A stretch of DNA of 64,000 bases, from positions 612,764-676,763 of the forward strand of contig NW_022985076.1 in NCBI RefSeq assembly GCF_010015585.1, given 5' to 3'. Every line of letters begins with the position of its first letter. Positions within the stretch are counted from its first letter, which is position 1. This document shows, piece after piece, positions 5,255 through 26,656 of this stretch. The notes beneath the pieces are model-generated. The model was not told where the DNA came from, did not search any database, and saw only the letters and a list, made by a program, of their open reading frames with translations. This DNA comes from Eremomyces bilateralis CBS 781.70 (lineage: Eukaryota > Ascomycota > Dothideomycetes > Eremomycetales > Eremomycetaceae). Both the position numbers and the translations under genes were made by a program.

Positions 5255-8200
5255 CTAGGAAAATAGCAGGGACGATGGTTCGAGCAGGTGTCGCATGGCC
5301 GACTCCAGCTCTTCGAGAAGAGTGGCTGCAAAACCTATCCAAGACTCGAATGTCACAATCTCCAATATCATCTCATCCCCTTTGATGAACGCCTGGATCT
5401 TCCATTCTCGCAGAGGCTCAAGGTGCGGATAGATCGTCTCCATCCTGCAAGGGGTCGATCCAAATGCCATTTGCTCCACATGTTCGACATCTTGATGTAC
5501 GACCGTGTCGAACCAGTCAACGGTCTCTGGCCAGTCGGTGCAATGTTTGACAATCTCCTTCAGTCCGATGCCTTCGTACCGCGTCCGCGAGATGTGTTGG
5601 TGCTGGATCGATTGAAGCAAGTCGAGCACAGTCCAGTCGGATTCAAATTTCACCCTGGTTGGAACGTATTGCCAGCTTGGTCCCATCACGGCTTCGCAGT
5701 CTGGAAGCTCCAAGTTGCGTCCGCTGGCAACCTCACCGAATGTCACATCTCGAGACGAGAGACGCCGCGCCAGGCAGAGCGCCCATGCGGCTGTCGGAAG
5801 CGTTGCGATGGTGATTCCTTTCGGTCTCGAGGAGATGTCGATGGCCTTGTGGACACTGGCTGACTCTTTAGACGTCAGGGGGATATCGGGTCTGAGGACA
5901 GACATCGAGGAACCTTGCAGGGTTTGTCTCCAGTACTCGAGGCTCTGGGGAATATTCGTACGGACGACATGTGAGACGAATCTGGAGAATGGAACAGCTT
6001 CCTGGACCGGTGTACCGTTGAACAAGGCCGACAGCTGCTGTAGTAGGATTGGGAGACAGATCTCGTCATACTGCGCATGAGAAATTCTCATCATCAGACA
6101 ACTTTGGTTGCGATCGCCCTTGATGTATAAGAACTTGAGGAAGGGCGATCCCATCGGCATTCTCGTTTGAATATCCAATTCACACAACTTCTGCGCGAAG
6201 GACGGGACATCTCCCTCGATCTCGTATTCGACAATAGGGACCTCGATATCCTCCACGACTACACCGTAGCATGCGCTTTCGTGTTCGATGAAGACTGTTC
6301 TGAGGATTTCGTTTTGGGCCACCAAATCATTACAGCTCCTGAGCAGCTTCGTGCCATCTACGGAAGCACTAAAGTGGAATAGTTCGTACCGAGCCGAATA
6401 TCGTGGCAGTTGGGTGGTTCCCTTGACTGCAATCTCTTGTAGAGGCCGAGCAGGGAGAACATCGACGATCTTCCAGTCATTCCGGGCCAATGCAGGGCGG
6501 ACAGCTGTCGCAACAAACGAGTCAACGTCTGGAATTTGGAGCGTCCCGAACGGCGAGAATGTCTCTTGGACAGTTTTCACGGACTGGGTGTCTTCTGCGA
6601 CATCAGCTAGATCCTTGAGTTGCCTGAAACGGAAGATTTGGGCGACCGTCAATTTGAGGCCGGCGATCCGCGCTTCGGATACCAGCTTCATGGCACTGAT
6701 GGAGTCCCCGCCGATGTCGATGAAGCTATCATTCAATCCGATCTCAGTCTCCGTGATGCCTAGAAGTCGGCTCCATAGACCTCGTAGCTTTTCCTGCTTC
6801 GCCGATGTCACCGGGGCCCATTCGGTATTGCCTTGAGATTTTTGGATATCCGTCCTCAGCCTCTTCAAGTCGCTCGTCTTTCCAACAATCACTATTGAGC
6901 TGTTGTCTGCGAACTTCGCAAGATACCCAGTTTTATACAGTCGCAGCTGATGATTTGCACCGTCGGTTGACTGAACATTCGCCCATTGCGGCTCCAAAGC
7001 GTCGTCGGTGTGACTTGTCGGACGCCCTGTCAGCAGCTCACCAACCGCACCGATCGGCACCAGGGCGTCTGGATCGGTAGGACAGACGATCCAGCTCGAC
7101 CCTGATGATTCAAAGCTGTGCAGATCTTTCTCGCTGGGGAGTAATGGTGCTCCGCTCAGTTCCCGAATCTCCGCTCGTTCCACATCGGTGAGAACATCAA
7201 TGGTACCAAGAAGGCTACGATCATCAGCACAAAGGTCCTGAACAACTTGTCCGAACTCTTTCAAGATTTTCTCCATCAAAGGCTTTCCGACTGTACAGGA
7301 ATCAAAGCTTGCCATGGTGAGGAAACCGTTCGAGTCCAGTGAGCAGACGAGCATGAGCGCGTACGAGTTGAACTTGAGCGCTTCCCGAGCAGCGTCTTCG
7401 TCTCCAGCTGGGACAAAGCCATTAGCAGGCTCACTCTCCAGCGATTGGGTGATGGCCTCTTCGGTACTCGGGTGAAGGACCATGCCAGTCCTCAGCTCGC
7501 ACGCGTCAAAGGCGTCCAGACTGAGCCTTCGGATGTGCTGCAGCCCCATATGTTCGTGAGGAATGCGCAGGACTGTCTGCTGGTGGATCGCTTGCAAGTA
7601 ATCCAACTTGGATGCGCCACGGTCAACGGTGACTCGGACCGGCACTGTGGTGATCATTGGACCTTCGATTTCCTCCACACCAGGGATCGCGGCGTTTCGG
7701 CCGGTCAGAGTCTCGCCAAATACTACATCACTAGATCCAGTGTATTGAGCAGCAATGAACGCCCATGCTCCACGGATAGCGGTCGCCAGAGTGGTTTTGG
7801 AGGCCACATTCTTCGTGATAGGTACGTAGTGTTCGAGCAAGGAATCTGCCTGTGGTTGATATCCTGCGAACGGCAGAGCCGGAAACTGTGGCCCTGTTGC
7901 TCCCTCCAACTGGTCACGCCAGAAATGGCTGGATTCAGAATTGTCCTGTGAAGCAAGGTGTTGAATGAACTGCTTGAACGAAGCTGAGCGGACGATTTTC
8001 TGGCCATTGAAGGCCTTGTTTATCCGCTCCACAATCAGCGGCATAGACCAGCCATCGTAAAGCGCGTGGTGCATCGTCAAGACGAATTGTATATTGCCAG
8101 CCGCATCACCATTTGTGCTGGATGGGTCTGCGACAACACCGTATCGGGCAAGAGGCGTGCCAAGATCCATTGCCTCTTCAGCATCTTGCTGCAGATATTC

Positions 8201-11200
8201 TTGAAGATTGGCTCCAGATCTCCAACTGATGCTCTCATTTACAACCGCTTGCATGAGACCATGGCCGGGGACCTGGATGATCCGGGTGCGCATGATCGGA
8301 GAGTCGGCCACTACAGTCTCGAAAGCGGCTTGTAGCCTCTTAGCAAATGCGAGATCTGGTAGTGGGACCACCCTTTGCGCGACATAGGCCTCGTTGACCT
8401 TTGCAGAAAGTGCCATGAGGCCCTCTTGCAATGGGGTGCAAGGGTATATGTCCTCAATCTGATGCGGTGCCAGACCGCACAGTTTCCCCACTTGGAGACG
8501 AGCGTCGTCAATGTTCCACGTTGGCCCAATTAAGGAGAATGGAGCCGATTCTTCGGTGCTCGCATCGACACTAACGCGACCCATAGCCCTAGCCATGTCC
8601 CGTAATATTGGATGACGGAAGATGTCGGCGACGGTCAACACCAGTCTCTCCGCTCGTGCAGCTGCCACCAACTTCATTGCCCGGAGAGAATCGCCACCGA
8701 CACTGAAAAAGTTTTCCCCAGAGCTGATTTGATCCTTCGAATCGAACAAGTTCATCCAAAGTTGCTGAAGACCTTTTTCCATTTCAGTCTGCGGCGCAAC
8801 GGTTTCGGTCGAACTAACCCTGAATTTGGACAGCTCTTGTCTGGAAAAGGAGGATCCAATCTCTCGCAGCTTCTTGCGGTCTGTTTTGCGCGAGACAAGA
8901 GATGGCATCTCTTTCAACGGAATGTATGTGGTGGGTATCATGTAACTCGGAAGGTCCTCCGCAAGCTTGGTCTCAATGACTTCTACCAATTTTCCAAGGC
9001 CTGGAGAGAAGTGGGTGAGGAGATCTGTCGGATCCGCGGCATCCGAGTAATTCGGTTCAGAGATGAAAGCGGCAAGCATGGGTTCACTGCCAGGACCGGC
9101 AGCTGTGATAACTTCCACAGTGATCTTCGTCCCCGACGGAAGATGTCTTGCGATATGATACTCTACCTCTGCCAGTTCGATCCTCTGACCACGAAGCTTG
9201 ACTTGTTGATCTTTCCGGCCCATAAAGACGATGGCCCCGGTGCCATCTTGATCGTATCTGACAAGATCTCCAGTCTTATAAAGCCGACCATATCGAGCCG
9301 CGGCAGTCCGGTATCCGTCATCCAGCCACACGGGATTCTCGATGAACACATCGGCTGTCTTTTCTGGTTCACGGAGATAGCCTTGCCCCACAACGGGACC
9401 TTCTATGAGCAACTCGCCAACCGCGCCGATAGGAACCAATCGATTGTGGTCTTCAGGATCAACTATCCAAGTGACACCACCAACGCCTTTACCGATGTTG
9501 GTATATGATTTTCCGTGGCCGATATCATTATTTATTGTGCAGCCAACAGTGCACTCCGACGGACCGTACGCAATAACCAGTTTCGTCTTCTGGTTCCAAA
9601 CGGAGGCATCCTTCGCAGATATTGATTCACCGCCGAGTCCGAGTACTTCCAAGGAAGGCATGATATCAGGGTCCAGAACCCGAGCCACAGACGGGGTCAT
9701 ATGAGCCATATTGACTCGCATGGATCGTATGGCTTCGCTGAGATCATTGACGCGTGCGTCTTCGGACGGAACACAAATGCAACCACCATTAGCAAGCGTG
9801 CAAAGCATACAATCAATGCTGACGTCAAAGGCATAGGATGGGAAGTCGAGCACTCGTGAGTGCGGCTTATAACCAACGAGTTCTGCTCTCGGAAGTGCCC
9901 CGCTGGTGAAGTTCGTGTGGGAAATGATGACTCCTTTCGGCTTCCCAGTGCTCCCAGATGTGAATTGGAGATACATGGTCAACACGGGATTGACGGGAGG
10001 AAGTTCAACGACTGCCGGCAACAACTCGGGCCGCATTGACTGGTCATCAACCACGACAACTGTCGCATTCGGTGCGATTGCGGCGCCGAGTTTCGATTGG
10101 GCTTGGGAAGTTACAACCAACCTGGCGTTAACTTCTGTCGCGATAGTTCGCAACCTTGCCTCTGGCTGACTTGGGTCCGTGAGCACGACGGCGCTCCCCG
10201 TCTTCATGACCGCAAGTAATGCAACCACTGTCCATTTGCATTTTTCGAAGGAGAGAGGAATGGTTCGACCGGGACCGGCGCCAAGATCGAACAGCCTGAC
10301 CGCGAGTTGCGTTGATAGGGTATCGACCTCCCCATATGTAAGATCCCCGTCCCATGAAGTGACTGCGGGACGATCGGGGGATTTATGGGCGATCTCGGAA
10401 ACGATGTCTTGCATGCAAAGTTTGATCGTTTCGGGAACCGTACCGTTCCACTTCCAGAGTTGAGTCAACTCACTTTCCCCGACACGGACCGCCTCCGTAA
10501 CGGAATGGAATTTTTTCGAGGCCAGGCCCGTTAGAATGTCCATACAAGTGGATAGATATAAGGAGACTGTTCCGGATGACATGTCGCATGGAGTTTGCGT
10601 AGGACGAATCATGACTTCGTCTTGGATCATCTTGACTTCGATGGCAAACGGCCACTATGAGAAGGTCAGCACTATGAAGAATTGAAGTACAGGACAGTAT
10701 CACGTACATTGCCTTCATGCAGCACTGCATCGGATGTACTGGCAAACAGGCCAACCCCTCTCCTGTTGGGCATCCCTTGACCAACCCCTGAAGCAACTTT
10801 CCGGCGCATGGCCGATACGACTTCCAGATTTCTAGGAATGTCTTCGTCATTGCTGGCGACTACGTCGACCAATTGACCGATCAACTCTGGGGCATCAAAG
10901 CTGCAGCTATCGAGGGGTACAGAAAAGCCCCAACTGTGCGCAATATCACCTCCGATACCCACGCCCCGATAAAGGAGATATATCCATGCCAAGAGGATCA
11001 AATCAGCCTGCTGGTCGGCATCCTTGAGACCAAAATGAGGAATAATTGTTGATGTCCATTGCGATCGTTCATTGCTACTGTCTTCGGAGACACCGCCTTC
11101 AGTAACAATGCTCGAGCTAAGATCTGGAATGGATGTTGGAGGGGTTATGGTCCCGATCGCAATGAATGTTTTATCTCCAGCTCGACTTTTGTCCGACGGA

Positions 11201-11223
11201 GAGACGGGGGAATAGGGGAGCAT
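5255..11223 (-). CDS. sidD: SidD-like fusarinine C nonribosomal peptide synthetase
   Basis: Exons complement(10708..11223) and complement(5255..10654), with a 53-base GTACGT...TAG intron, give 1971 aa. After an N-terminal extension of about 240 residues come a full adenylation domain (A3 LQFTSGSTGKPKGVIISH near 401, YGPSECTVG near 535, YKTGDLVRY near 631), a thiolation site (GGDSLRAMK near 826), and a condensation domain (MHHALYDGWS near 1033). A short remnant of a second adenylation domain follows (VCPTDPDALVPIGAVGELL), lacking the A3 core, then a second thiolation site (GGDSISAMK) and a terminal condensation domain with SHAQYDE. This A-T-C-dA-T-C layout is that of the NPS6/SidD family, which joins and cyclises three N5-acyl-N5-hydroxyornithine units into fusarinine C. 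The neighbours (sidF, sidI, sitT, sidG types) agree. The nearest SreA-type motifs lie 1.4 kb upstream. The last His motif has Glu where Gly is usual. Confidence 0.88.
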
Positions 11224-13566
11224 GTCGACTTCTGCTTCCCTTGAACTCCAACTCTTTGCTTGTATTCAATCACCCATTAAGGTAATAAGAAGTTCCAAGC
11301 GACCGATTCGACAAATGATTCTTTAGGAAGCGACTGGACTGATGCCTTGGACCTTTCCAAGAGATTCACGGGATAGAGCTTCGAAGAAGCGAAAGGCCTC
11401 TTTCAACAAAATGGAAGCTTGCAAGTCCAACTCGAGAATGGCATTACAGGGTACTGCATTTGATACAATTCCGGTCGTAACGAATTAACACCCACCCTAA
11501 ACGCAATCTCGGAAGAACATCCCGCTTCCATACGCCTACAACCCAGCACCTTGATTCCGTTCCATTTCCAAGGGAACGCGAATCACCTAGACTGTCTTTC
11601 CACTCTTTCCACGTTGCCCACCCCACCATGTGAGGCAGCGGCTAGAGTGTGGTCCAGTTTTTGATCTTCCATGGCTCGAACACGGCCAGGATGGCACGAT
11701 CTCAGGTTTCCCGAGGCAAGCTCCACGAGTACGACCCCTTCGTCATTGATCACCATGTCCGAAACCGTTTCACACGTCTATAGCATTTTCCACTCGGGTG
11801 GGGAATTATTTTCAAGTTTCTCGCAGCAAGGATGGTAGCGCAGGATTTGAGAGTATTTGACGATTGGCGCCTGGTGGAGTGAATTCAGTGCCGGGCCCAG
11901 GGGTTCTAGTATCAGTTAGTTGAAATAGCCCCCGATTTTCGCGTGCCATAGGAGAAATAATGGGTTCCGTGATCCGTCAAGCAATAGCCGGAATCTATGA
12001 TTCAGCAAACCGTTTAAGTTTAGCTCCAACCCCCCACCCTCCCCACCCCCATTCTCGAATGCCGTCTACCTGACCTCGGATACAGTGGTAGTTGCTATTT
12101 ACTATGTATTATGTATATATGTAATCATATTAGCCAACGCTGTCAGCCATTCAGTGCCCCCAGAGGTGCGGATTTTTGAATTGGTTGCAGGATCGTTGAA
12201 CGGTTGATCTCGGGAGTTTGCAGCAACGTTAATTAGGTACCCTACGGAATAATGCCGAACTCGATGTGCTCGGGACGAATCGCGAATAACCTCAGGGATC
12301 TCCCTGGGCTACAGAACCAGGGATGGACAGGATCACACGATGATGCCGATTAAAATGGCGTGAAAAAATTGAACAGACCAGGCGGAATAATGCGTCTGCA
12401 CTCTGCAGTTTCAGTCAGTGAACAGGCTATTTATGCTGTTGAACACGGGTATTAGGTATTCCGTACGGAATACACGACAAAGAATCTTGAAAATGTCGAG
12501 GCACGGGTTGATATTTGCGAAAGAAATTTGTTCGAGGATGATCCCTGCGATTGGTAGGCGTTTCCTGTATTAATCCTTGTCACATCCTTGCAGCTTGGCA
12601 TCTGATAACTTTAATTACATGTGATCTGATGATCTGATAACCTCCCTAAAGGATCTGATATGATAACAGGGGCAAGTGGATCATATAGATCGACGTTTGA
12701 CGCTTCAGTTGGCGGGCCGGAATCGGAGCCTCTAACAGATTGTCCCTTAGCGAGGAGTATTCCCATTTAGTCAAAGTTTTCACGTACCACTTACCAGCTG
12801 CCACGCATCTAGGCACCGCCATGGAAGTCTCTCAGTCCAGACTCTAGAGTGCCGTGAGTGCTCATGTTGCGTGCGGCCCATTGACCCGAATCTGCCGTGA
12901 CCTGACAGACGATAGTAGCAGGAGAGCAGAGAGATGCGTCACTTTTTGTGTGTGCGCGCTAAGTGCTCACTGCGACTTCACTAGATGTGATGTCGTCTTC
13001 CAGTGTCATCGGGCGATATCGCTTTATCGTCCAGCCCACTTCGTTCGCATCCGGAGAAGTTTCTGGCTTTCCCACATATACAGCATTATAGTTCATATGC
13101 ATGCACGGGTATCTGGCCACTTTGGATCTCCTCCGGGGTCATATTTACAGTGAAATGGATGAACACTAACCTCTCGGGCATGGGACTCTAAAGGACGAGA
13201 TGGTTGACAGTCTCTGATAGGTTGGCGAAACCGTGGGGTGGCAGTCTTCTCGGGCCAAGGCAACCCCCAAAAATCACCCTCCAGCGTCTAGCCACTCCAC
13301 CAGGGGTAATAAACAGTTGACAATATCACCAAATTACTGTGGCCAGAGGTTTGAAATCATACCGTTGCCCGGCCCAGATATGCTTCCAGGGACGAAAACG
13401 GGCATAATGGGGTGGCTGGGTGCACCCTGCTTGCGTCGATGATCCACCCTTGGCAAGCCATTACACCGCAGATAAGAATGACGATTTTTTTTGAAATCAA
13501 TGGTCTTGATTGTATTATTAAGAGCAACTGCTTTGTCGATTAAACATCCCAATGAGGAACAGTTTA
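11224..13566. other. 2.3 kb sidD upstream region
   Basis: Between the sidD start and the sidF stop, both on the minus strand. No frame here looks like a real protein; the 99-codon plus-strand frame at 12854-13153 is compositionally unremarkable. It should hold the sidD promoter. The clearest structure is the GATA motif cluster at 12600-12666. The C-rich tract near 12030 and the AT-rich run near 12105-12130 are otherwise unexplained. Confidence 0.6.
12600..12666 (+). promoter_or_regulatory. cluster of SreA-type GATA motifs
   Basis: Two exact ATCTGATAA motifs (12600-12608 and 12632-12640) lie with near matches at 12624-12632 and 12653-12661 and a TGATAA at 12661-12666. ATCWGATAA is the established consensus of the iron-sensing GATA repressor SreA, which shuts off siderophore genes when iron is plentiful. 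The cluster lies about 1.4 kb upstream of sidD and 0.9 kb beyond the sidF stop, so sidD is the likely target. Confidence 0.7.
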
Positions 13567-14956
13567 CTACAATCTCGCCATCGGTCCGATGCCATCAGCA
13601 CCTTTGACAACGCCATCGTACGCCATGGGACAGAGTTGGAAGAAGCGCTCCCGGGGACAGACCATTAAAGCAGATCGCTTGTGTGGGAGGTCAACCCACT
13701 CATGCACCGCGAACCCGTTCGCAAAATCATAAGCAAGAACCGTCGCATTGGTCGCTTTTGGCTCTCCTACGACGCGCATGGTCCGGGGCTCATCCAGGAA
13801 AATGTAGTGCAGAATCGCTGCCCACCACATGGCAACCCGGTGAGGACCCCGGAAACGAACGTCTCCAACGAGAGAGTGTCGACCGCGATCGTGAGGCTGG
13901 AATTTGTGGTATGCGCCCAAGTTATCTTCCTGTATTGCCGTTAGCGTCACGCTCCATTCTCATCTAGACGTCACTTACCTGGGCCCAGTATATCTCATAA
14001 TACGCGAAAAACGTATTATCGAAACTTGCCAGGACCGCCATTTGATGCGGGTCGTTGTGTATATCAGTCAAATACTCGAGATGTTCTTCCATGGTCCCGC
14101 TTTGGTTCCACCCTTGGGCGACCCGTGGATCGTTCTGCCATCGATGGAATAGGTCGAGGTGCTCCTTGTTTGCGATGTCCAAGGCAACCATGGAAAAGTG
14201 CTCCCGCAGATGCGGGATGTATCGGCTGTATATGGTTGAACCAGGCTGCGGCTTTGCAGGCCGTCGAAGGTGTCGCGTATGGACGCGGCCTTCAGGGAAC
14301 GATGTTGTCTGCATGTAATCCAGCGGCATTGGAGGATATGTGGACAATGCCTTTTGGCCATCAAAGGGAGTTTCTGGGAGCCATACAGGACGAGCGCCGA
14401 ATGGGGACCCAGCACCTTGCCAGAAGGCGCTTCTAAGGATGATACATTCGGTAGGCAATGGCGACCATGGAGTTGCGATACTTGAGAAGACAATCGGGAG
14501 AGGGTGTTGGATGGCCAGCATAACGGTGCAGAGTTGCTCCTTCAGAGCTTCCGCGCCGGATCCCTTCAGGCTGAAGCGAAGCTGCTCCAGCTGGGGAGAC
14601 ATCTCCAAAAGGACGTAGATAGCCAGCCATGATTGCGCTAGGGTCGGTTTTTCGGAACCAACCCATTCCAACGTAGCAAGCGGACTACGACGGGCTCGTC
14701 CCCAAGCAGTATTGTCTGACTGTGGCGGGGCATCAGCCGGTCGATCGGCAGGTTGCGTTATGAAGATGGAATCGGACTCGAGCTCGTCTGGAGGCGGGAT
14801 TCCTTCTGGGAGCGAGTTCGGAGCCGGATTGGCTCTTCTAATCTGCAATACCAACTGCTCTTGCGATGATTTTGAAGACTTGTAGGCCTCGTACGTCGTC
14901 AGGTACGGATGAGGAAGACGAATGGTGAACGATTCGAAAGGAGTAGACGACGTCAT
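13567..14956 (-). CDS. sidF: SidF-like N5-hydroxyornithine acyl-CoA transacylase
   Basis: Exons complement(13979..14956) and complement(13567..13929), joined by a 49-base GTAAGT...CAG intron, give 446 aa. The C-terminal half carries the IucB/AlcB-type GNAT acyltransferase signature: HRWQNDPRVAQGW, FAYYEIYWAQEDNLGAY (spanning the splice site), SLVGDVRFRGPHRV, LDEPRTMRVVGEPKATN and WVDLPHKRSAL. SidF moves an anhydromevalonyl group from CoA to N5-hydroxyornithine for fusarinine-type siderophores. The related SidL uses acetyl-CoA, and sequence alone does not separate them, but the adjacent SidI-type ligase favours SidF. The protein ends MARL, a PTS1-like peroxisomal signal, which fits the known peroxisomal location of this step. 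The start MTSSTPFESF was preferred over a Met 40 codons upstream. Confidence 0.85.
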
Positions 14957-15865
14957 TGTGAAAACGCGACTGATATGGTTTGTTGACTGACGATTGAGGA
15001 CTTGTGAAGGCTGAAGAAGACACTTGCAGAAGACACAGGAAATTATTGAACGGTGGAAAGTTTCAAAGCTTCGCAACAGCTACACAACATGATCCATACC
15101 TCCCCGTCCTGGATCCGGACCTAAGCCGGCAAACTTAGCCATCTCACCCTTCGATTTTCACGCCTCGCGTCACATCTTCTCCGCCGTCGCTCTTAAACCT
15201 GGCTGCTGGCATGGTCTGACGACTGACCCCGTCCAGGCCGCCTCTGATGATCTGATTAACTGAAAGCGTGAACCCCCGCTTCACAGACCCATCAGCGATG
15301 GGGGCACCGTAATTGAGGCATCCTGGGAAGGGTGCAGTGCAAGGGCCCATATTAGTGTCTCCAGGCGGTAAAATTTTTATCAAACTGCGGTAATTTTGGG
15401 ACCATCACGGACTCACGGTTTATGGTGAATTTGAGATGGTGGACATAGCGCAGGCGGAAGAAAAGTGGAAGGATGGACGCGTCCTGATTGATCAGATAAG
15501 ATTGCAATCCTTGTGTTGTTGTGATGGATCATCACGCTAATGCAACTGCGATTGTCCCCGAATATTATCGAATCTCGCCTTTTCATGGAGACCAGTCGGC
15601 ATACTCATTCCTGAAATTTATCTTCGATTTGGTAGGGACCCGAAATCGGTGCCGAGTCTCCGCCGTGCCTGATGCTAGTACGTGTATGTGAGAACATTGG
15701 GGTTGACTAGTAGAATGATGTCAATCCTGTGTCTGGCGCTGTCTGGTCTGTGTCTAGTTCTATCGAGAATAGTTCGCATGTTTAGGTGTTGTGAGGACAT
15801 CTTTGATCGCAATGCGCTTGAGATCTATTCATTGAGTTTGGTTATGCCGTGTAAACCAATTCACC
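14957..15865. other. bidirectional promoter between sidF and sidI
   Basis: A 909-base gap between the divergent sidF and sidI starts. It contains one exact SreA-type motif and one near match (ATCTGATTA at 15250-15258), so the two enzymes that make and transfer the acyl group are probably co-regulated from it. No protein-like frame is present. Confidence 0.65.
15491..15499 (+). promoter_or_regulatory. SreA-type motif ATCAGATAA
   Basis: An exact match to ATCWGATAA in the sidF-sidI divergent promoter, 367 bases before the sidI ATG and 535 bases before the sidF ATG. Confidence 0.65.
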
Positions 15866-17742
15866 ATGTCTGCAGAACAGAGTCTCTACGCTCCTGGCGA
15901 GCAACCCGCCAATGACCTTTCCATCCTCCATGGGCCTTCAGACCCTCCCTTAGTCTCTTTAACGTTAAGCGGACTACTAGATCTACAGTGCTTCCGGTAT
16001 GGCGAGCGAGAATGCCTCATCGTTCCTTGGACGGGAGCTCGCTGGACGTACAGCCAGCTACGAGACGAGAGCATCAAGGTAGCGAAGCTCCTTCTCGATG
16101 TTGGTATTCGCAAAGGGGACCGAGTGGCTATCATGGCCGGTAACTGCGAACAATACGTCGCTGTTGTCTTTGCCGTCGCCAGGGTTGGGGCAGTTTTGGT
16201 TGTACTGAACAATACGTACACTGCAAATGAAGCTCTCCGGGCAATGCGACATACTGGCAAGCTCCCTTGCGCAATTGATTTTTGGGATGTATCTGCTAAC
16301 TATATGCAAGGCTGCAAATTGCTCTTCACAACATTTATGGTCGGGAAGCTTGACAATGGTCCATTGATCGCGAAGCTTTGTGAAGAGCCGCATCTCGCCC
16401 CGTCCATGGAGGAGATCATCATTCTCCGTGGAGAAACACACGGTTTCAGGGCATATGATGACGCGCTCCTAAGCGGTGAAATATTTCCTGAAAGCGTCCT
16501 CAATGGACCTGGCAACCGAGCCTTCCATCATGACGTCTCAACACTGCTATTCACAAGTGGGTCAACTGGGAATCCCAAGGCCGCGATGCTTACTCACTAG
16601 TGAGTCTCTCTTCTAATATATTATACACCATAGCTAACCAGACTCTAGCGGGGTGGTCAACAACTCCCGTTTCATTGGAGATAGGATGGCCTTGACCCCT
16701 GACGATGTCCTTTGCTGCGCTCCTCCCCTATTTCATTGCTTTGGCTTGGTCCTAGGTCTCCTAGCGGTGATAACACACGGATCGAAGATCGTCCTACCCG
16801 CCGAGATGTTCGACCCTCTAGCAACCCTTCGGTCCGTATTCACTGAGAAGTGTACCGCACTTCATGGTGTCCCAGCAATGTTCGACTCCATATTCACTTT
16901 ACCTCGAGGCAATCTGCCAAAGTCACGTCTTCGTACTGGCATTATTGCCGGTTCACCTGTCCCAAGGCACCTTATGGAGCTTATGTTCAGAGATTTTGGA
17001 ATGACGGAATTTACAAGCAGCTACGGTACGGGTTCTAGGGTCCATTCTATCCCCTCTCGATTTTGACCGGATTATAGGACTTACAGAAGCCTCGCCAACG
17101 TGTTTTAATGCATTTACCAGTGACACGATCGATCGGAAACTGAATACCGTTGGAAAGTTAATGCCTCATGCCCATGCCAAAATTGTCGACGTCAATGGAA
17201 AAATTGTTTCTATTGGCACAAAGGGAGAATTGTGCATTGCGGGATATCAGTTACAGGCTGGCTATTGGAAGGATGTTGATAAAACGGCCGAATGTATGAA
17301 GATTGACGAGAACGGTGTGTTGTGGCTTCATACCGGCGATGAAGCCGTCTTCGATCGCGAGGGCTACTGTTCTATCACCGGGCGATTCAAAGATCTCATC
17401 ATTCGAGGTGGTGAGAACATCTATCCCTTGGAAATCGAAAACCGACTAGTGGAACACCCTTCGATTGAGCGAGCTATCGTCGTCGGTGTCAAACATCCAA
17501 GGTTAGGGGAAGTGGTCGGAACGTTTCTCCAGTCCTCGCCAAGACAGAAGCCTATCAGCCAAAGAGAAGTCAGAGAGTGGACATCTGCTACACTGGGCAA
17601 ACATAAGGCGCCGGCCCATGTGTTCTGGCTTGGAAGAGACGGTATTCCTAATTCAGTTCCGCTGACTGGCAGTGGGAAGATCAAGAAGTATGAGCTTCAA
17701 GCACTTGCAGAGCAGATGTTACACGGTGCGCCGAGGCTCTAG
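15866..17742 (+). CDS. sidI: SidI-like acyl-CoA ligase (mevalonyl-CoA ligase)
   Basis: Exons 15866..16256, 16311..16599, 16649..17025 and 17078..17742 give 573 aa. The first intron is GC-AG (GCAAGC, branch CTAAC, AAG end); it is 54 bases and stop-free, so an unspliced message would only gain 18 residues. Removing it restores the usual RHTGCKLLFT of the family. The AMP-forming ligase motifs are LLFTSGSTGNPKAAML near residue 209, SYGLTEASPT, WLHTGDEAVFD, GRFKDLIIRGGENIYPLEIE and GSGKIKKYEL. SidI activates mevalonate for the siderophore acyl group. The C-terminus APRL resembles a weak PTS1. In A. fumigatus sidI is, as I recall, unlinked to sidD, whereas here it is divergent from sidF. Another acyl-CoA synthetase of the same clade is possible. 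Confidence 0.75.
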
Positions 17743-17860
17743 AAATGGGCGTTTCTGGAAAATGAGGGGATGTGTCGAATCTACAGCGTTTGATTTTATA
17801 TAGGTCTCATTATCATCAATAGATTTCCAAAAATGAACTTGGTTAGCTTAATGCATTACA

Positions 17861-19301
17861 TCACACCTCCAACTTTGCGGAGCTTCCAACACCCTCCGAC
17901 TCGCCCTGCGGCCATGAACTATCTTCAAACGGTGTCACTCCCATGTGCCTCCATGTCCCGTCGCACATGAGGGCGGGGTCCGTCTCTTTCCCGGGGAAGA
18001 CCAGTTCCGTTTTTCCGTCACCAAAGTGGGTGACAGAGTTTTCCTAATAAGATCAGTATCGTCTCATTGCTTCTCGTTTTATGGCGACTACTTACTAGTC
18101 CTAATGTGAGCTTGATGACGGCTTCACCCCACCAGGGCTTGTAGTGGTGGGATGGCTTCTTTCCCCAGGTGACCCGAGTGATGTTGTCTGCAGCTATCTG
18201 TCCCTGGCGCATCGCAGATCGAGCATTTGGGTTGCGTGTACCAGTGTCCGCAACATCGCCGATAATGTATACGTTGGGAAGCGAGTCATCAGCAATCTGT
18301 AACGTCGGCTTCACGCGGATATGGCCCGACTCGGAAATTGATCCTGGAGCAAGGTCGGAAAGGAGCTGTGACGATGGTTTCTGCCCAGTGCAGTGTATCT
18401 AACCGATCAGTCGGCAATTGGAAGAAATGTTCGACATGGGAGAACATACCACGGCATCGCATTCTAGGACTTTGCCCGATTTCAATAATACTGTACCAGA
18501 TTCCACATCTTCTGATACCATTCTTTCGCTGAGGTGAACTTCGACACCTAATCTTTCCAGCCCTTCCAGAGCGGCCGCCTGGAGCTCCGAACCAAAGCGC
18601 TGCATGACTGTCGGGCGAGAGTGGACCAGTGCCACATGTTTCTCCGGGTATAGCGATTTGGCATCTGTGGCCAACTCGACACCTGCCGCGCCTCCGCCGA
18701 CAATCAAAGGTCTCTTCGACTCCTTGATGCGCATCTGCATTTTCCTGCACCGCTCGACCCCCTCCGGCTTGCCTGGAGCGCCCACCCGCGAGGGTAATGA
18801 GTCCTCCGCACCCGAGCCAGTTGCGATGATCAGAAATGCGTATGGGATTTCTTCGGTACTACTCTGCAGTCGAATGCTTTCTTTGCTTACACTGACCACG
18901 CGGTCCTGGATCCATCGAACCATGCTCTTGGGCGCCGGCTTGAGGTACGGCCCATAAGGGATGAATGCCTTGTGTTCGTGCCCTTCAACGACGCAGAACC
19001 GTGGAAGAACCCAGGTGAACTGAAAATGGCTGTTCGGTTCCACCACCACTACCTGATACGGGCTGTTCGGGGGAAGGGAGTTGGTCAGCAACTTTGCAGC
19101 ATGATAACCAGAGAACGACGCCCCGATCACAACGATATTCTGTAGCTCTTTCGGCGACTCGGGAGAGGTGACTCTGGACTTTGCTCGCCGGCCATGCACT
19201 GAAGCAGCGATTGATTGGGTTAGGACATCGAAGTAGAGCTGAACGCTATAGATGACGATCTTGGCGAATAGGATCGACTTTGCAATCTTTTTGAAAACCA
19301 T
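17861..19301 (-). CDS. AIF/AMID-like FAD-dependent NAD(P)H oxidoreductase
   Basis: Exons complement(18450..19301), complement(18096..18398) and complement(17861..18043), joined by GT-AG introns of 51 and 52 bases, give 445 aa. A hydrophobic helix (ILFAKIVIYSVQLYF) at residues 10-24 suggests membrane anchoring. It is followed by the FAD site VVIGASFSGYHAAKLL, IATGSGAEDS, the NAD(P)H site LIVGGGAAGVELATD, then IHCTGQKPS and VYIIGDVADTG. These are the two-dinucleotide-binding-domain flavoprotein marks of the AIF/AMID (FSP1, NDH-2-like) group, whose members reduce quinones or similar acceptors. It lies between sidI and sitT, converges with sidI 118 bases away, and has an exact SreA-type motif 157 bases upstream. 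An iron- or siderophore-linked role is inference; a bystander is the alternative. Confidence 0.8.
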
Positions 19302-20007
19302 CGGGAATTAATAGGTGCCCTCCTTGTCATTCCAAGGAGACTAAAATTTAAGGAATAAAAGAATACTGCCCATCAGTGGATTGAGTAAAAGATGGCGGTT
19401 GTCAAGAGCACCCAAAACCGGCAGACAGGATGAAGGCATAAGGAAATGTATCGGACGATCTGATAACGAGAAAAACACTAGTTGCTACTACTGTTGAGAA
19501 ACACACACAAGTAAGGACGAGCCGAAGCGACCGTTTGGATGAGGTCCGGGCCATATTTTACATGCATAACCAAGGCTTAGGAAAACGACGGCGTCACCGG
19601 CTACTGTAGTCTTTTGCGCCGGGATAGCGAGATCGGAGTCCTGTCCATCCTGGTCCTCAGGCATTCCATGGACAATTGAAATTTGTATCCATGTCGATTG
19701 TCGAACGATGGTAGAGTAGCCAAGAAAAGGAATCGACAAATACCTGCGGCATTACAGCGCTTAAGATGAAGTAGAGTAGGAAGTAGAATTGTCAACTCTT
19801 TGGGATGGCTTCAGAGCTCAGTTCAACCCCTGAAAGTGCCCCACCTCAGCATATGGCGTTCTCTCACAACATCTATGCATTATCGCTCACAAATAGTGTC
19901 CAGCAACATACACGCCTAGCATTTAGCTATGCCCCTCATAGCATTGAAAATCTAACTATTCCACCTAATTACAGATTAACAGCCTAGTTGTAAGAATCCG
20001 GACCCAA
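19302..20007. other. intergenic, FAD oxidoreductase promoter
   Basis: 706 bases between the oxidoreductase start and the sitT stop. It holds the oxidoreductase promoter with one SreA-type motif. A 60-codon plus-strand frame at 19805 has no recognisable features. Confidence 0.6.
19458..19466 (+). promoter_or_regulatory. SreA-type motif ATCTGATAA
   Basis: An exact match, 157 bases upstream of the FAD oxidoreductase ATG and the closest motif to any start in the cluster. It is the main sequence argument that this gene belongs to the iron regulon. Confidence 0.65.
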
Positions 20008-23000
20008 TCATCGCAGCATTTGCCTCTCTGCATTCACCCTGTAGCTCTCACTGGTTGCCATCAATTCCTCATGGTTCCCCGTTTGTACAACCTTCCCTTC
20101 CTCCAAAACCAGGATGACATCGGCCGCCTGCACAGTCCGTAGTCGATGCGTGATCGCCACGACGGTAATCCCCTTTGCCGCCTGATCCAATCCATCCTGG
20201 ACCGCTGCTTCGCTCTCCGCATCCAATGCATTCGTGCTTTCGTCCAACAACAGTAATCTCGGCTTGCGAACCAACGCTCTCGCGATTGCCACCCGCTGTC
20301 GCTGGCCACCCGATAAACGGGATCCGTTCGGCCCGATCTCCGTGTCATAGCCGTCGGGAAGAGCTGCGATCGTCTCATGTATGTTGGCTAGACGACAGGC
20401 GGCTTCAATCTCTGCGTCGGTCGCTTCATGTCCGCGACGAGCGCCAAGGGCGACGTTGAAACGAATGGTGCCGTCGAAAAGTGCAGTATCTTGAGGCACG
20501 ACAGCAATGTCGTCGCGGAGAGCAGCAGCATCTGGGCGAGAGAGATCGAGACCGTCGATGGTGACAGAGCCGGATGGCGGATTGTACAAACCTTGAATGA
20601 GGCGCATGATCGTAGACTTTCCGGCCCCAGAAGGGCCGACGAGGCCACAGAACTGTCCCGGCCGAATGGTAAATGACATACCTTGGAGGATTGAAACATT
20701 TGCTGCTGAGGGATAGGAGAACGAGACATCGTTGAATTCGATGTTCACACCTCGACTCAACGGAAGCGGCTGTGACTTGGCTTCCCCGACGGCCTCGATA
20801 TCCTTCTCTGTTGCTGGAGTGGGTGAATCCCCGTCGAGTTGTGGGGGATTGGAACCTTTATCTGATCCAAGATTGATGAGGTTCAGAATGCGAGACGCCG
20901 ATGCGTGTGCTCGGGAAACCTCTGGGGCTAATGAGAACATCTGGCCCCAAAGCTGGGCGCTAACAAGCATAGCGACGAGAACAATGAAAAACTGCGTTTG
21001 GTCATACCGGCCCTCCATGATCTGCTTGGAGCCCCACCAGTATGCGAATGCGTAGATAAGGAATCCCGTGCTGTTGGCGAGAGCAAGCCAAAAGTTGGTG
21101 AAGACACTGGCAAGACCGAGCTCTTTCCTTGGAGCATGTAATGCTCGACGATATGTTCCCAGTACTTCATCTTCGAGGGACAGTGTTGCAATGGTTTTGA
21201 TTGAGTTTACCGCTTCAAAGGTGATGGCGTTTGCTTTGGAGTAGGCATTCGCATGTCGTGTCTCGAACCTGGAGAATGACCACAGTTGCATGATACCGGA
21301 CCCTAGAAGCACTGGGACCGTAACAAGGCAAACAATTGCAATCTTCCATGCAACGATGTGCGAGAGAATTATTGCCACAAGCATGTTAATGACCACGGCA
21401 AAGATCGTTCCAATGATCGAGCCGGTAAGGCCACCGACAGCAGCGCTGTCTTTTGTGATGATTGAAAGCAACGACGAAGGGTTGCGATCATGAGAATGGT
21501 GCCATTCGAAGGACTGTTGGAATAGCGAGCGGAACGAGAGTACTCGGATTTTGTACAACAGTCGTTCAGCCACCACTCCGAACGACGACCAGCTTGTGCA
21601 GTTCGCAAGGAACTCTACACAGGCAAGCATGAAGAGCAAACCGCCGAAGAATAGACCACTGGATATAATGCGCTCTGCTGTGTTGAGACAAGGATTCAGA
21701 GCACCGACGGTATGACCAAAGATCAATCCCGCAGCGGAAAACATGCATCCAACGAAGATGGCTGCAAACATGGCCAGGAGCAGCCAAAACGTGTTGGGTC
21801 GAACGAACGGGAACATTCCTTTGATGACGATCCAAGCGGAATGTTTAGTGTCGATATCTTCCTCAGGTTCCTGGGAGTTCGTTTCGCCCACGGTATCGGC
21901 GGCTCCTGCATCTTGCGCGCTGAGAGAATCCTTCACCGGATGTTCGACCGATTTGATCTTACCCAGTTTCTCTGTAGTGATATCCGAGGATACGTTGATG
22001 CTGTCCGGTCTCGACAAATCGGAATCAGTAGCCTGTTGGCCCGGACCGATGGCCTGGAGACGAGCCATTTCGGCAAAGGCGCCATTTGCAGATACCAGGC
22101 CGGTATAAGTGCCTTGCTCCACGATTTCGCCTTTCCGTAAGACGATAATATTGTCGGCATTCTTGACCGTTGAGAGACGGTGAGCAATGGATACTACGGT
22201 CCTTCCTTTTGCAATGCGGTCAATGGCCATCTGGATACGCTGCTCACTTGCGGAGTCCAAGGACGACGTGGCTTCGTCAAGGATCAGCAGCTTTGGATCT
22301 CGAATGATCGCGCGAGCTAGGGCAATCCGCTGCCGCTGACCTCCACTAACCAGCTTGCCGCTGGATCCGACCATTGTGCAGAATCCATGGTCCAGGCGTC
22401 CGATGAAATCAGTAGCATCGGCCAGATCGGACGCTTCGCGCACTAGTTCGATGATTCGTGCTAGATCTGCGTTTTGCGGAGTCGAGGCGGTCAAGAGTTT
22501 ATCCCCCTTGGCGGCAAATTCGGTCAGTTCGGGCCCATGGAGAAGTTCCTTTAGCTTCTGATGCTGTGGTTGCGGGGAGCTGACAAGGCCAAGGGCAATA
22601 TTCTCAAAGATGGACCGATCCAGGAGCAATGGTTCCTGCGGAACAAGGCTGATAGAGCCTCTTAAACTCCGTAGGTTTAGCTCACGCACGTCGCTCCCAT
22701 CGAACAGGATGGACCCATTGGATGGGTCGTAAAGACGAGCGATCAATGCTGCAATCGTGGACTTGCCACTGCCAGAGATTCCAACCAGGGCGGTATGTTG
22801 TCCAGCCGGGATGCTTAGGTCGATGTCCTTAAGGACGGGGTCGTCTGGTCTTGACGAGTAGACGAAGGATACGTTTCGGAACTCGATTGCTCCAGGGGTG
22901 TCGTGCGCCAGTTCGCGGCCGGTATCGTTCGTGCCATCAATTTCTGGGGTCTGGGCAATATCGGCGCGCAGTCTCTGAAAGGCGGAAGCTGCGGTCCCAA

Positions 23001-24182
23001 AAAGGGGTAGGAGTGGTGCGATGGCGCCGAGCATCACGCACGCGTCAACCAGCAAGAAGACCACGGTGTAGACCTCGCCGACCGTAGATCCTCCCTCGCC
23101 ACGAACTGCAGCAGCGACAAGCCTGCTTCCTTGCCAAAATGCAAGGGCATTGGCGGAGTATGCGATGAAGAAGAGCAACCCGGCTTGGACACCAGAGGTG
23201 ATCGCCTTTTTGATTCCCGCTTTTCTGGCTTTCTCCATGTGGCCACTGAACTTTGACTCCAGCCTGGGGGCAGCGTCGAACGCCTGCACGACCGCTACGT
23301 GCGTCAGAGCTTCGGAAGCGATGGACGCCGCCGATGCGGTGGCATTTGATATGCGCAACGAGAACTTCTGCACGAAGCTGCCTCCAACCGCGCCCATTAA
23401 CAGGAACGCCGGAACCAGAGAAACCAACATGCCTGCGAGTTTCGCTTCTTTCATGAAAGCAACAATGTATGCCGTGAGGAAGAAGGAGATACTGGCGATG
23501 AAGATTCCCACTTTCTCCGAGGTTCCGGACTGCACGGCTTGGATGTCTCCATTCAGCTTCGACGCAACCTCACCGGCGCTCCGGCGGTCAAAGAACGCAG
23601 CATCCTGTCTGAGAAGGCATCGGAAATACTGCTCGCTTAGCCTTTGGCCTAACCGTTGGCTCAAAAGGTTCCAGCAGAGTACATATATATAGATAAGCGC
23701 AAATGCCGCAATGGCGATGTACACCAGCAGAACAACTTTATCCTGGATTTGCGATGTATACGACGACCCGGAACCGGTTGCGGTGGCCTCGCAGGACGCT
23801 AAATTGATGTCATCGACCAATTGACCAAAGAGGATTCCCATCAAAGGGAAAGGCACACCGGCGGCGGCGGCAGCAATAGTACCAACGACTAGAAGGACGA
23901 TATCGAGCCATGAGGGGTTTGCCGTGACGAGGAGACTAAGGAATGCAAACAGCGCATTCTGAACCTGGAGCCGTGTTAGAGCAAGGCTCGAGAAGCTCGT
24001 GGTTATGATTCTTAGGAGGGGTTCCTGGAAATGGGGATGTGAAGACGATTGGGAGCATGCCATTCTCGTACCTTAGGCTTGGCGTTTGGAACCGAACTCT
24101 CTTTCGTCTCTTGAACCGTTGTGACTGCTGTAGCAGGTGCTGAATCAACAGATTTCTCTGTTTCCACCTTGGACTCAGCCAT
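20008..24182 (-). CDS. sitT: SitT-like ABC multidrug/siderophore exporter
   Basis: Exons complement(24072..24182) and complement(20008..23964), joined by a 107-base intron (GTACGA...CAG, branch CTAAC), give 1355 aa. The first exon supplies a 37-residue hydrophilic N-terminus starting MAESKVETEK. The layout is a full-size ABCB transporter, (TMD-NBD)x2. NBD1 has Walker A GISGSGKST near 431, signature LVSGGQRQRIALARA and LLILDEATSSLD. NBD2 has GPSGAGKST near 1130, LSGGQRQRVAIARA and LLLLDESTNALD. A. fumigatus has an ABC transporter, SitT, next to sidD, and this gene occupies the same setting. Export of siderophores, intermediates or their breakdown products is the likely role. Two SreA-type motifs lie 260-282 bases upstream of the start. 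Confidence 0.85.
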
Positions 24183-24441
24183 TATGGTTCGACAGCAACT
24201 CACTTGACATCGACCTTCCTTGACCAGGACTGGATGACAACTTGTAGGTCAGTTCTTCTGATGTTGAAATTGAACTGCTGGTGTCATGTCGCAGAAACAT
24301 GTGCCACGGGTAGCGTGGGATCCAACACCCCCGCTAAAATCGTCAACGGCGTCATTTTTCACAATACACGCTATGGAGTAAATCGGTGTAATCTCTGTAC
24401 AATTCCCTCTGCCGATGCCGGACCATGAGCGACAGATCCGG

Positions 24442-24464
24442 ATCAGATAATTCCGATCAGATAA
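24442..24464 (+). promoter_or_regulatory. paired SreA-type motifs ATCAGATAA
   Basis: Two exact ATCAGATAA motifs at 24442-24450 and 24456-24464, offset by 14 bases, 260-282 bases upstream of the sitT ATG. Confidence 0.7.
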
Positions 24465-24830
24465 AATTTTCACTAGGCCAAGAAGTGTTCGAACCGGGGT
24501 CTTGGCCACGATAGAGACTGAATGACTGCTGAACTGACGCAATCATCTTCCGTCTCCACCCTCCATGGGAAAGTCAAAGGCGCCGAGAAATTTTCAAGGA
24601 CCAGGATATTTCAAGGACCAGGATGGTGTCACAGTGCGGATCTAGTGAAGAAAAGAATATGGAGGAGCGGGTCGATGGAGCAAATACGAATTACGAAGCA
24701 GGGAGGAGGAGGTTGAGGTGACATGGGTGTACATGGATCAAGGATATAGCCGGGGCGTTTTCAGGGGTATGGCCAGGGGTAATTTCCGACACTAATCAGG
24801 GTTTGTGCATGGGGCAGCGGATCTGATAAC

Positions 24831-24839
24831 TTTAATGTA
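24831..24839 (+). promoter_or_regulatory. SreA-type motif ATCTGATAA
   Basis: An exact match in the sitT-sidG divergent promoter, 662 bases before the sidG ATG. The 16-base context ATCTGATAACTTTAAT is identical to that at 12600-12615. Confidence 0.6.
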
Positions 24840-25500
24840 TTTTCTTGGCTTGCTAGGGAATAACGGAAAAGAAACTTCAGGATTCCCGCTCCACCGACCA
24901 CCGATTATTATTATTATCGCAGGTCACTAATCCCCCGTCTATTCTCTCTTGTAGTCTTGTCCCGCCCTCCAGGCACATTCAAGCCATAGATCCTAGCTAT
25001 ACGGTCTACCGAATACGCCAGCTCTGAGGAGTACCAAGAACTTGATCCTTCACCAATGTAGCCCAGAATGTGGACCCTGCATTTGTTAGACATTTTGCCG
25101 ACACCTACCGTAACTTAGTCGCTTCGCATGTTGTCCTCTATGGACTCATTGTTATTAGATGCTTCATTGAAAAAGCCACAATCAAGAACTATCGCCTGAT
25201 CTCTGGTCTGGACTCTGATCTATCTTATCTCTGCTAGGAAGCTTGCCATCATTCTCGGATACATTCGATTTGGTTTCTTAGCGTGGGATAAATCGCGCCA
25301 TTACACTGCGACTCCGGCGTCAAACTCATCAAAGTTGGAGCTTCAGCGTTTTTCCAAGTTATTTTAAACCTTCCTTCGCTCCAGTTTGGTTACGTGCTCC
25401 TAGGTCTCTTCCTTCTCAGTGTCGATCTTTCCTCTCTACTTGTGCCCCTAATCCAATCCACAGTTTCACTTAGCTAAACAATTGCTACTCCCCTTCCACG

Positions 25501-26284
25501 ATGGGTCTTGTCGTCCTCCCCGCATTGATTCCCGATATCGAGAAGATTTATGATGTCTACTTTTCCGCCTTCGGCAACGATGAAATGGGCTCCATCATGG
25601 TTGACGTGCTCTTCCCGTCTGGGGTAAACGCGGAATTCCGAAAAGCACACACCGCCGCTACCCTGGACTGGTGGCACAAGAACCTCGTGCAGTACACAGT
25701 GAAGTGCGTTGATACCGATACAGGCGAGATCGTCGGCATGGGACTGGGAGACTTGTACCTCACCGAGCGGAGTGAGGAGGAAAGGAAGAACGGAGGAGTG
25801 CCGTGGTTGACGGGCAAGGAGAGAGAGAGAGCCGAGGCGATTCTGGACCCCTTATGGGCGGTGAAAGAGAAGTTGTTAGGTGGCAATCGACACATGTGTA
25901 AGTCCTCCTTTCCCGGTGGTTGGCGTGGCCACCTCCCAAGTGAGAATATCCCATTCTTTTTCTAATCAGTCCATAGACTGCCATGTCATCGGAGTCACTC
26001 CAGAGCATCAAGGGCGGAGAGGGGGCGTCCTTCTTACGGAATGGGGCATGGAATTGGCGGAGAGATCTGGGGTGCCACTTTATTTTGAATCGTCCCCGAG
26101 CACGTTGGCCTTTTATCAGAAGCTGGGTTTCGAGACTCTCTCTGAGAAAATCGTGCACAAGAAGGAGTTGCTTGGCACGGAGAACGATATTGAGGTTCCT
26201 CTGATGGTCAAGATGCCTTCAGCTGCTGGAGGTATGACCTTTGAGGAGTGGCGTGCCAAGGGATACCCGAAGGGCTACAAATGA
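25501..26284 (+). CDS. sidG: GNAT acetyltransferase, probable SidG (fusarinine C acetylation)
   Basis: Exons 25501..25897 and 25977..26284, joined by a 79-base GTAAGT...TAG intron, give 234 aa. The start MGLVVLPALIPDIEKIYDVY opens a GNAT fold. The acetyl-CoA-binding motif is GVTPEHQGRRGG just after the splice site, followed by ESSPSTLAFYQKLGFE, the usual GNAT motif B. SidG is a GNAT enzyme of about this length that converts fusarinine C to triacetylfusarinine C. The assignment rests on family, size and position in the cluster, since many fungal GNATs look alike. The gene is divergent from sitT and shares its GATA-containing promoter. Confidence 0.65.
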
Positions 26285-26647
26285 AGAATGAATTGGTTGA
26301 CGAGAGCGGATCGATGGAATTGGAATGAATGCAACCGATATTGTTAGATATCAGCAGGTGTCTGAATGCCCCAACAACGGTAGCAACCACTGACTTTAAT
26401 AGCGAGCGCTTCTTTCTGTGTGTAATGCAAGATTATCATGAGCCTTGGTTGGTGCAACTCACACTGTATCCACTGTGGTTCCTCCAGGTTTATTGGCAGC
26501 AGAGACTACTTATATACGTACTATGCAAAGGCTTACGGGGTTACCGACCCCTGCTCCTCATGGTCCTGAAATAAGCAATAGATATTCCATCTGTAGATTG
26601 AAGAGGCATTACATCATTCCAAGTTCCAACCCTGTGAATGAGTGCGG

Positions 26648-26656
26648 ATCAGATAA
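26648..26656 (+). promoter_or_regulatory. orphan SreA-type motif ATCAGATAA
   Basis: An exact match with a near repeat (ATCAGACAA) at 26662-26670, located 364 bases beyond the sidG stop and with no confident gene downstream. It may serve a gene that has been lost or that I failed to see. Confidence 0.5.

What the first reader, a model, noticed from the sequence alone, without database searches (positions are those of the whole stretch)
5255..26284. Compact fusarinine/TAFC-type siderophore cluster with sidI and sidG types inside it
Six contiguous genes read as sidD, sidF, sidI, an FAD oxidoreductase, sitT and sidG types. In the A. fumigatus arrangement as I recall it, sidI and sidG lie apart from sidD-sidF-sitT, so this would be a more complete, one-locus version. 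No enoyl-CoA hydratase (SidH), esterase (SidJ) or MFS uptake carrier (Mir type) is visible here, so those functions must be encoded elsewhere.
Basis: partly seen in the sequence, partly recalled or inferred. Interest (0 to 1): 0.7.

Follow-up and report, generated by a model that had tools for sequence, protein, structure and literature searches.

The report
Iron-regulated fungal siderophore gene cluster

Summary
The six genes are real, at the stated places: NRPS (A-T-C-T-C), SidF, SidI-like acyl-CoA ligase, FSP1-like FAD oxidoreductase, ABC transporter, GNAT. SidF is secure: solved SidF 7qf6 matches at E 1.1e-129. The SreA-type motif ATCWGATAA occurs 10 times in the window, 9 of them in 11224-26700 (about 0.23 expected there; 0 of 1000 permuted motifs reach 9); each gene has at least one in the intergenic DNA upstream. 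So this is very probably an iron-controlled extracellular siderophore cluster of SidD/NPS6 kind. That it is unusually complete is not supported: sidI beside sidD/sidF is published for several fungi. 'TAFC' is not established: five of the six genes match, in type and length, copA-copE of the P. roqueforti coprogen cluster, whose 233-aa acyltransferase acetylates coprogen B; the GNAT here is 234 aa. No SidG or CopE sequence was at hand. I put coprogen near 0.55, TAFC/fusarinine near 0.35. SidA, a SidC-like NRPS, candidate carriers, a siderophore-type esterase and a SidJ-like protein lie elsewhere in the genome; SidH was not resolved. Known kind, modest interest.

The parts
5255..11223 (-). NRPS of SidD/NPS6 type, domains A-T-C-T-C, 1971 aa in my model (one intron; N-terminus uncertain)
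   Evidence: Pfam in order along four fragments: AMP-binding, PP-binding, Condensation, PP-binding, partial Condensation; model; solved relatives are generic NRPSs and the SidN A domain 3ite
13567..14956 (-). SidF-type N5-hydroxyornithine transacylase, 446 aa, C-terminus ARL (PTS1 consensus)
   Evidence: solved SidF 7qf6, E 1.1e-129, residues 12-435; PF13523 161.6 bits; C-terminus
15866..17742 (+). SidI-like acyl-CoA ligase, 588 aa, C-terminus PRL
   Evidence: PF00501 240.9 bits, PF13193; solved relatives are generic ligases, so 'SidI' rests on family and place
17861..19301 (-). FSP1/AIFM2-like pyridine-nucleotide oxidoreductase, 434 aa (like OXR1/CopD by type and place)
   Evidence: PF07992 106.4 bits; ferroptosis suppressor protein 1, E 1.7e-21
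20008..24182 (-). full ABC transporter of ABCB type, 1355 aa (SitT/ABC1/CopC position)
   Evidence: two ABC_membrane and two ABC_tran stretches; best solved match a-factor exporter 7qkr
25501..26284 (+). GNAT acetyltransferase, 234 aa; CopE-like or SidG-like
   Evidence: PF00583 27.0 bits; solved match only puromycin N-acetyltransferase, E 8.1e-9; other matches in the genome at most 34 bits
12600..12640 (+). two ATCWGATAA sites, 1.4 kb upstream of the modelled NRPS start
15491..15499 (+). ATCWGATAA site in the shared promoter of SidF and SidI
   Evidence: 535 and 375 bases from the starts
19458..19466 (+). ATCWGATAA site upstream of the oxidoreductase
   Evidence: 157 bases
24442..24829 (+). 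three ATCWGATAA sites between the divergent ABC and GNAT genes
26648..26656 (+). ATCWGATAA site downstream of the GNAT, no gene model next to it

Best explanation
An iron-repressed cluster for an extracellular anhydromevalonyl-hydroxamate siderophore of SidD/NPS6 kind. Inferred route: SidA (elsewhere, beside a SidC-like NRPS) makes N5-hydroxyornithine; SidI makes mevalonyl-CoA; an unlinked enoyl-CoA hydratase makes anhydromevalonyl-CoA; SidF joins the two, probably in the peroxisome; the NRPS couples the units; the GNAT N-acetylates the product, most likely turning coprogen B into coprogen (fusarinine C into TAFC is the alternative). The ABC pump probably exports siderophore or breakdown products; the FSP1-like flavoprotein probably serves redox handling of the iron. 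A SreA-type GATA factor probably represses the six genes when iron is plentiful. Shown: gene content, SidF orthology, motif placement. Inferred: every enzymatic step, the product, the regulation. I hold the core (iron-controlled SidD/NPS6-type cluster) at about 0.95; the number below is for the whole with coprogen as product.
For: Solved SidF at E 1.1e-129. NRPS A-T-C-T-C, the layout described for coprogen/fusarinine NRPSs. Nine motif sites in 11224-26700, P about 4e-12, 0 of 1000 permuted motifs reach nine. Two of the six genome places with two close same-orientation sites are in this cluster; the other four lie upstream of two MFS genes, an FSP1-like gene and an OPT gene. Lengths 1971/446/1355/434/234 against 1898/442/1322/416/233 for copA/B/C/D/E of P. 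roqueforti, where loss of copE stops acetylation of coprogen B. M. robertsii, a coprogen maker, has sidD, sidI, sidF under consecutive tags, oxidoreductase and ABC next by accession (adjacency inferred). Histoplasma has NPS1, SID3, SID4, OXR1, ABC1 in one iron-induced region.
Against: No SidG or CopE sequence could be compared, so the GNAT is unresolved. The copA-E set lacks a CoA ligase and has copF and copG, which are absent here. A homologous cluster is reported in F. graminearum, a TAFC species by a title seen in a listing, so this gene set does not fix the product. A siderophore-esterase family gene and a SidJ-like gene exist in the genome, as in ester-siderophore users. The HapX-type pattern shows no excess. 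The two NRPS sites lie 1.4 kb from the modelled start; one site is in the ABC coding region and one has no gene beside it. No expression data. SidI rests on family and place.
Confidence: 0.55

Rival explanations
1. One reading: a fusarinine C/TAFC cluster. The NRPS makes fusarinine C, the GNAT is SidG and triacetylates it, and ferri-TAFC is taken up by an MFS carrier and opened by an esterase.
For: SidF, a SidD-type NRPS, a SidI-like ligase and a GNAT together. Elsewhere an esterase of the siderophore-esterase family lies beside an MFS gene, with four motif sites between them and one beyond the esterase, and a SidJ-like protein exists. A homologous cluster occurs in F. graminearum, a TAFC species by a listed title.
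Against: The esterase is closer to 6guo (445 bits) than to the entries named TAFC esterase or EstB (204 and 181 bits). The SidJ-like gene has no motif nearby. SidG was not found in six surveyed fungi with sidD-type genes, and one paper says homologues are known from only a few genera. The acyltransferase length and cluster content fit the coprogen cluster.
Confidence: 0.35
2. The same cluster, but the GNAT is not a siderophore acetyltransferase: it is a neighbour of other function, and the product is unacetylated coprogen B, dimerumic acid or fusarinine C.
For: The GNAT match is weak and generic; its nearest motif sites (24821, 24442/24456) may serve only the divergent ABC gene. Paracoccidioides makes coprogen B and dimerumic acid.
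Against: A same-length acyltransferase acts in the P. roqueforti cluster, and Histoplasma G186AR has a second acetylase in its cluster.
Confidence: 0.12
3. A decayed or silent cluster without an iron function.
For: No expression data exist here; the site at 26648 has no gene model next to it.
Against: All six models have open frames; motif concentration P about 4e-12.
Confidence: 0.02

Closest known systems
Penicillium roqueforti coprogen (cop) cluster, PMC12278577 (section 11, part of 14, passages)
   Same: NRPS, SidF-like acyltransferase, ABC transporter, pyridine-nucleotide oxidoreductase and a second acyltransferase of nearly the same lengths
   Different: it also has a sulfotransferase and an MFS gene and lists no CoA ligase; here a SidI-like ligase is inside and those two are not
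Metarhizium robertsii coprogen/metachelin cluster, PMC8656255 (passages)
   Same: sidD, sidI, sidF under consecutive tags; oxidoreductase and ABC next by accession
   Different: the passages seen name no second acyltransferase in that cluster
Histoplasma capsulatum SID1 region, PMC2275787 (passages)
   Same: NPS1, SID3 (SidF), SID4 (CoA ligase), OXR1, ABC1; same promoter motif core
   Different: contains SID1 (sidA type), NIT22 and RTA1; a second acetylase (SID5) only in strain G186AR
Aspergillus fumigatus sidD-sidF-sitT locus (Table passages of PMC5932178)
   Same: sidD, sidF, sitT together
   Different: sidI on chromosome 1, sidG further along chromosome 3, sidH within the sidD locus by locus tag
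Ceratocystidaceae / Trichoderma virens / Metarhizium anisopliae cluster, PMC6563098 (passages, figure legend)
   Same: NRPS, siderophore biosynthesis protein, oxidoreductase, ABC transporter in one cluster
   Different: has a siderophore transporter and other genes inside

Membership tests
SidD/NPS6-type extracellular siderophore cluster | one-A-domain NRPS with A-T-C-T-C layout | tested here: met
   (last Condensation match partial, profile 33-354 of 456); layout as
SidD/NPS6-type extracellular siderophore cluster | SidF orthologue beside the NRPS | tested here: met
   7qf6, E 1.1e-129
SidD/NPS6-type extracellular siderophore cluster | SreA-type motif upstream of the genes | tested here: met
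   seven sites in the four upstream intergenic regions of the six genes
SidD/NPS6-type extracellular siderophore cluster | induction in low iron | not testable with these tools
   no expression data
Peroxisomal SidI/SidF | PTS1 or PTS2 on SidF and SidI | tested here: inconclusive
   SidF ends ARL (consensus, as listed for P. nodorum SidF); SidI ends PRL, outside the stated consensus but like PKL listed for Leotiomycete SidI; no PTS2-like motif in 15300-15990
TAFC cluster | SidG orthologue | not testable with these tools
   GNAT present, but no SidG sequence at hand; solved match only generic
TAFC cluster | EstB-type esterase in the genome | tested here: inconclusive
   esterase closer to 6guo (445 bits) than to EstB entries (204, 181 bits)
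Coprogen cluster of P. roqueforti type | copA-copE gene types | tested here: met
   five of five by Pfam type and length; sequences themselves not compared
Coprogen cluster of P. roqueforti type | acyltransferase of CopE sequence and coprogen as product | not testable with these tools
   no CopE sequence and no metabolite data

The most novel reading that the evidence does not exclude
The FSP1/AIFM2-like oxidoreductase that recurs in these clusters (OXR1 in Histoplasma, CopD in P. roqueforti, the Metarhizium homologue) is a dedicated NAD(P)H-dependent releaser of iron from the siderophore, a reductive counterpart of the EstB/SidJ esterase route. A second, distant FSP1-like gene here (31% identity over part) lies behind the only place in the pattern search with three same-orientation SreA-type sites, which would make such flavoproteins a standing arm of fungal iron handling.
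Probability: 0.15. Interest if true: 0.6.

Novelty: new member of a known kind. Interest (0 to 1): 0.3.

Why it matters
One more fungus with a compact siderophore locus carrying iron-control motifs, and a warning: a cluster named TAFC-type from gene names can match a published coprogen cluster just as well. It leaves two testable gaps: which acyltransferase makes which siderophore, and what the recurring FSP1-like oxidoreductase does (called uncharacterised by the P. roqueforti authors).

Tried and rejected
HapX-type pattern CSAAT-N12-RWT (recalled): 19 in the window, 22 expected, no signal. SidH: 20 exon-level enoyl-CoA hydratase matches in the genome; 13 loci held were checked for the motif and 1 had it, at the 3' side of the gene, so not a promoter; the matches on C19 and at C4:154929 were not examined; four models look alike by eye and three end SKL, AKL and SNL, but I could not choose. 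C14 weak esterase hit: looks like homoserine acetyltransferase by eye, dropped. Decayed gene at 26285-29623: short frames listed only, not searched against families. Structure prediction was not used: the spliced proteins are not read letter for letter from the DNA and a GNAT fold would not separate SidG from CopE. SidG, CopE and other fungal proteins: no collection at hand beyond solved structures. The species was not identified. The background count (0 motifs in 29 loci, 106 kb) was made after loci known to carry hits were left out, so it is no unbiased control; of the 51 loci (some overlapping), 7 had the motif, two of these being this cluster.

Full report
Observation. I modelled them with a small gene finder of my own and checked domains with Pfam: an NRPS on the minus strand with A-T-C-T-C; a 446-aa acyltransferase with an Acetyltransf_8 domain; an acyl-CoA ligase on the plus strand; a pyridine-nucleotide oxidoreductase; a full ABC transporter; and a 234-aa GNAT on the plus strand. 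A low-threshold rescan of 24183-30600 found only the GNAT and a NUDIX_2 gene at 29624-30494. Of my 20 window models, 14 were scanned with Pfam.

What is secure. SidF: phmmer finds solved SidF (7qf6; its species, A. fumigatus, is recalled) at E 1.1e-129 over residues 12-435. The SidI name rests on family and place, since the best solved relatives are generic acyl-CoA ligases. The oxidoreductase is closest among solved structures to ferroptosis suppressor protein 1. The ABC transporter matches an a-factor exporter and ABCB1-type pumps best, so 'SitT type' is a matter of place. The GNAT matches weakly; the three other matches in the genome reach at most 34 bits. No fungal protein collection was at hand beyond solved structures, so SidG and CopE could not be compared.

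Regulation. ATCWGATAA was reported as over-represented upstream of SreA-regulated genes in A. fumigatus (passages of PMC2610380), and its core in the Histoplasma cluster promoters (passages of PMC2275787). Here it occurs 10 times in the window, against 0.96 expected from shuffles, of which none of 100 reached 10. Nine lie in 11224-26700: 0.23 expected, P about 4e-12, and none of 1000 permuted motifs reaches nine; the largest count, 5, belongs to a near-identical word. I chose that interval after seeing the hits, so P is a guide only. Seven of the nine lie in the four intergenic regions upstream of the six genes; one lies in the ABC coding region and one downstream of the GNAT. Genome-wide, two same-orientation sites at most 30 bases apart occur 7 times at 6 places; the mirrored pattern gives the same 7. 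Two places are in this cluster. The others lie upstream of an MFS with a TRI12 match, an FSP1-like oxidoreductase, another MFS and an OPT transporter. Two GATA matches in open frames of 246 aa lie about 340 bases apart on one strand of C18, as expected of a two-finger SreA-type factor (recalled trait). This is motif evidence, not expression evidence. The HapX-type pattern gave no signal.

The rest of the pathway. SidA lies on C8 (solved L-ornithine N5-monooxygenase, E 9.3e-144); beside it is an NRPS stretch with six Condensation matches, presumably SidC; two motif sites lie between them. Another Acetyltransf_8 gene, presumably SidL, lies on C6. On C3 an esterase of the siderophore-esterase family (6guo 445 bits; TAFC esterase 6gud 204) diverges from an MFS gene, with four motif sites between and one beyond the esterase; that this MFS is a siderophore carrier is my reading by eye, as Pfam gives MFS_1 only. 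A DUF1749 protein resembles 6gup, 'siderophore biosynthesis lipase/esterase' (180 bits; that this entry is A. fumigatus SidJ is recalled); it has no motif nearby. SidH was not resolved.

Which siderophore? The P. roqueforti coprogen cluster has NRPS 1898, acyltransferase 442, ABC 1322, oxidoreductase 416 and second acyltransferase 233 aa, plus a sulfotransferase and an MFS, and no CoA ligase in its table (section 11 of PMC12278577); disrupting the second acyltransferase gene removed coprogen and left coprogen B (passages). Here the five lengths are 1971, 446, 1355, 434 and 234. M. robertsii, which makes coprogens, has sidD, sidI and sidF under consecutive locus tags (passages of PMC8656255), and the oxidoreductase and ABC proteins follow by accession; adjacency is my inference from the numbers. 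Histoplasma has NPS1, SID3, SID4, OXR1, ABC1 and SID1 in one region, and strain G186AR a second acetylase. Against this: a homologous cluster is reported in F. graminearum (passages of PMC6563098, which do not say there that it holds the oxidoreductase), a TAFC species by the title of PMC4290682 (search listing only). So I put coprogen near 0.55 and TAFC/fusarinine near 0.35.

Novelty. sidI with sidD and sidF is in print for S. apiospermum, M. robertsii, Histoplasma as SID4, and C. carrionii, C. bantiana and A. melanogenum (as told in PMC10382037); for Paracoccidioides the passages name sidD, sidF and a sidI-sidA pair in the promoter survey and say that four of six genes lie in about 22 kb. 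A second acyltransferase in such a cluster is in print for P. roqueforti. I saw no paper listing exactly these six in one locus, but I saw only passages or single sections of 15 papers, found through 10 searches, and figures are not held. SidG is reported absent in C. sphaerospermum, S. apiospermum, C. carrionii, M. mycetomatis, V. dahliae and W. dermatitidis, so a true SidG here would be of some interest.

Papers seen as passages only, besides those named: PMC4886633, PMC5932178, PMC3895014, PMC10382037, PMC12198395, PMC6502550, PMC4059230, PMC3709128, PMC4144954, PMC6737921. PMC12278577: section 11, part 1 of section 14, and passages.

Noticed in passing
L052 (G000:C1:107001-115000), gene 2348-3785 (-), sites 4363, 4381, 4414: A second FSP1-like oxidoreductase (Pyr_redox_2, 102 bits) with three same-orientation ATCWGATAA sites in 60 bases about 0.6 kb upstream.
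   Followed up: partly
L057 (G000:C3:123001-132000), ORF 4250-5224 (-) and MFS 6728-8887 (+): Divergent siderophore-esterase family gene (best solved match 6guo, 445 bits) and MFS gene with four ATCWGATAA sites between them and one beyond the esterase.
   Followed up: partly
L054 (G000:C4:199001-206000), MFS 3115-5289 (+), sites 2437, 2461, 2474: MFS gene with MFS_1 and TRI12 matches and three ATCWGATAA sites (two +, one -) within about 50 bases upstream; candidate siderophore carrier.
   Followed up: partly
L055 (G000:C8:575001-582000), gene 3645-6976 (+), sites 3053, 3073: OPT oligopeptide transporter gene (577 bits) with two ATCWGATAA sites about 0.6 kb upstream.
   Followed up: no
L053 (G000:C1:2291001-2299000), MFS 2113-3981 (-), sites 4024, 4036: MFS_1 gene of unknown substrate with two ATCWGATAA sites just upstream of its modelled start.
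   Followed up: no
L059 (G000:C3:91001-97000), MFS 1407-3072 (-), site 3203: MFS gene with a TRI12 match and one ATCWGATAA site 131 bases upstream of its modelled start.
   Followed up: no
window 26285-29623: Gene-poor stretch after the GNAT with a lone ATCWGATAA site (26648) and, by eye, imperfect repeats near 26.95-27.33 kb; possibly the remains of a lost gene or element. Only short frames were listed.
   Followed up: partly
genome-wide pattern matches: All seven close same-orientation motif pairs read on the + strand of their contigs and none on the -; probably chance, not explained.
   Followed up: no
window 46767-49460 (+): Copper amine oxidase gene (PF01179, 419 bits) whose last modelled exon holds the one motif match outside the cluster (48629, - strand).
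   Followed up: no
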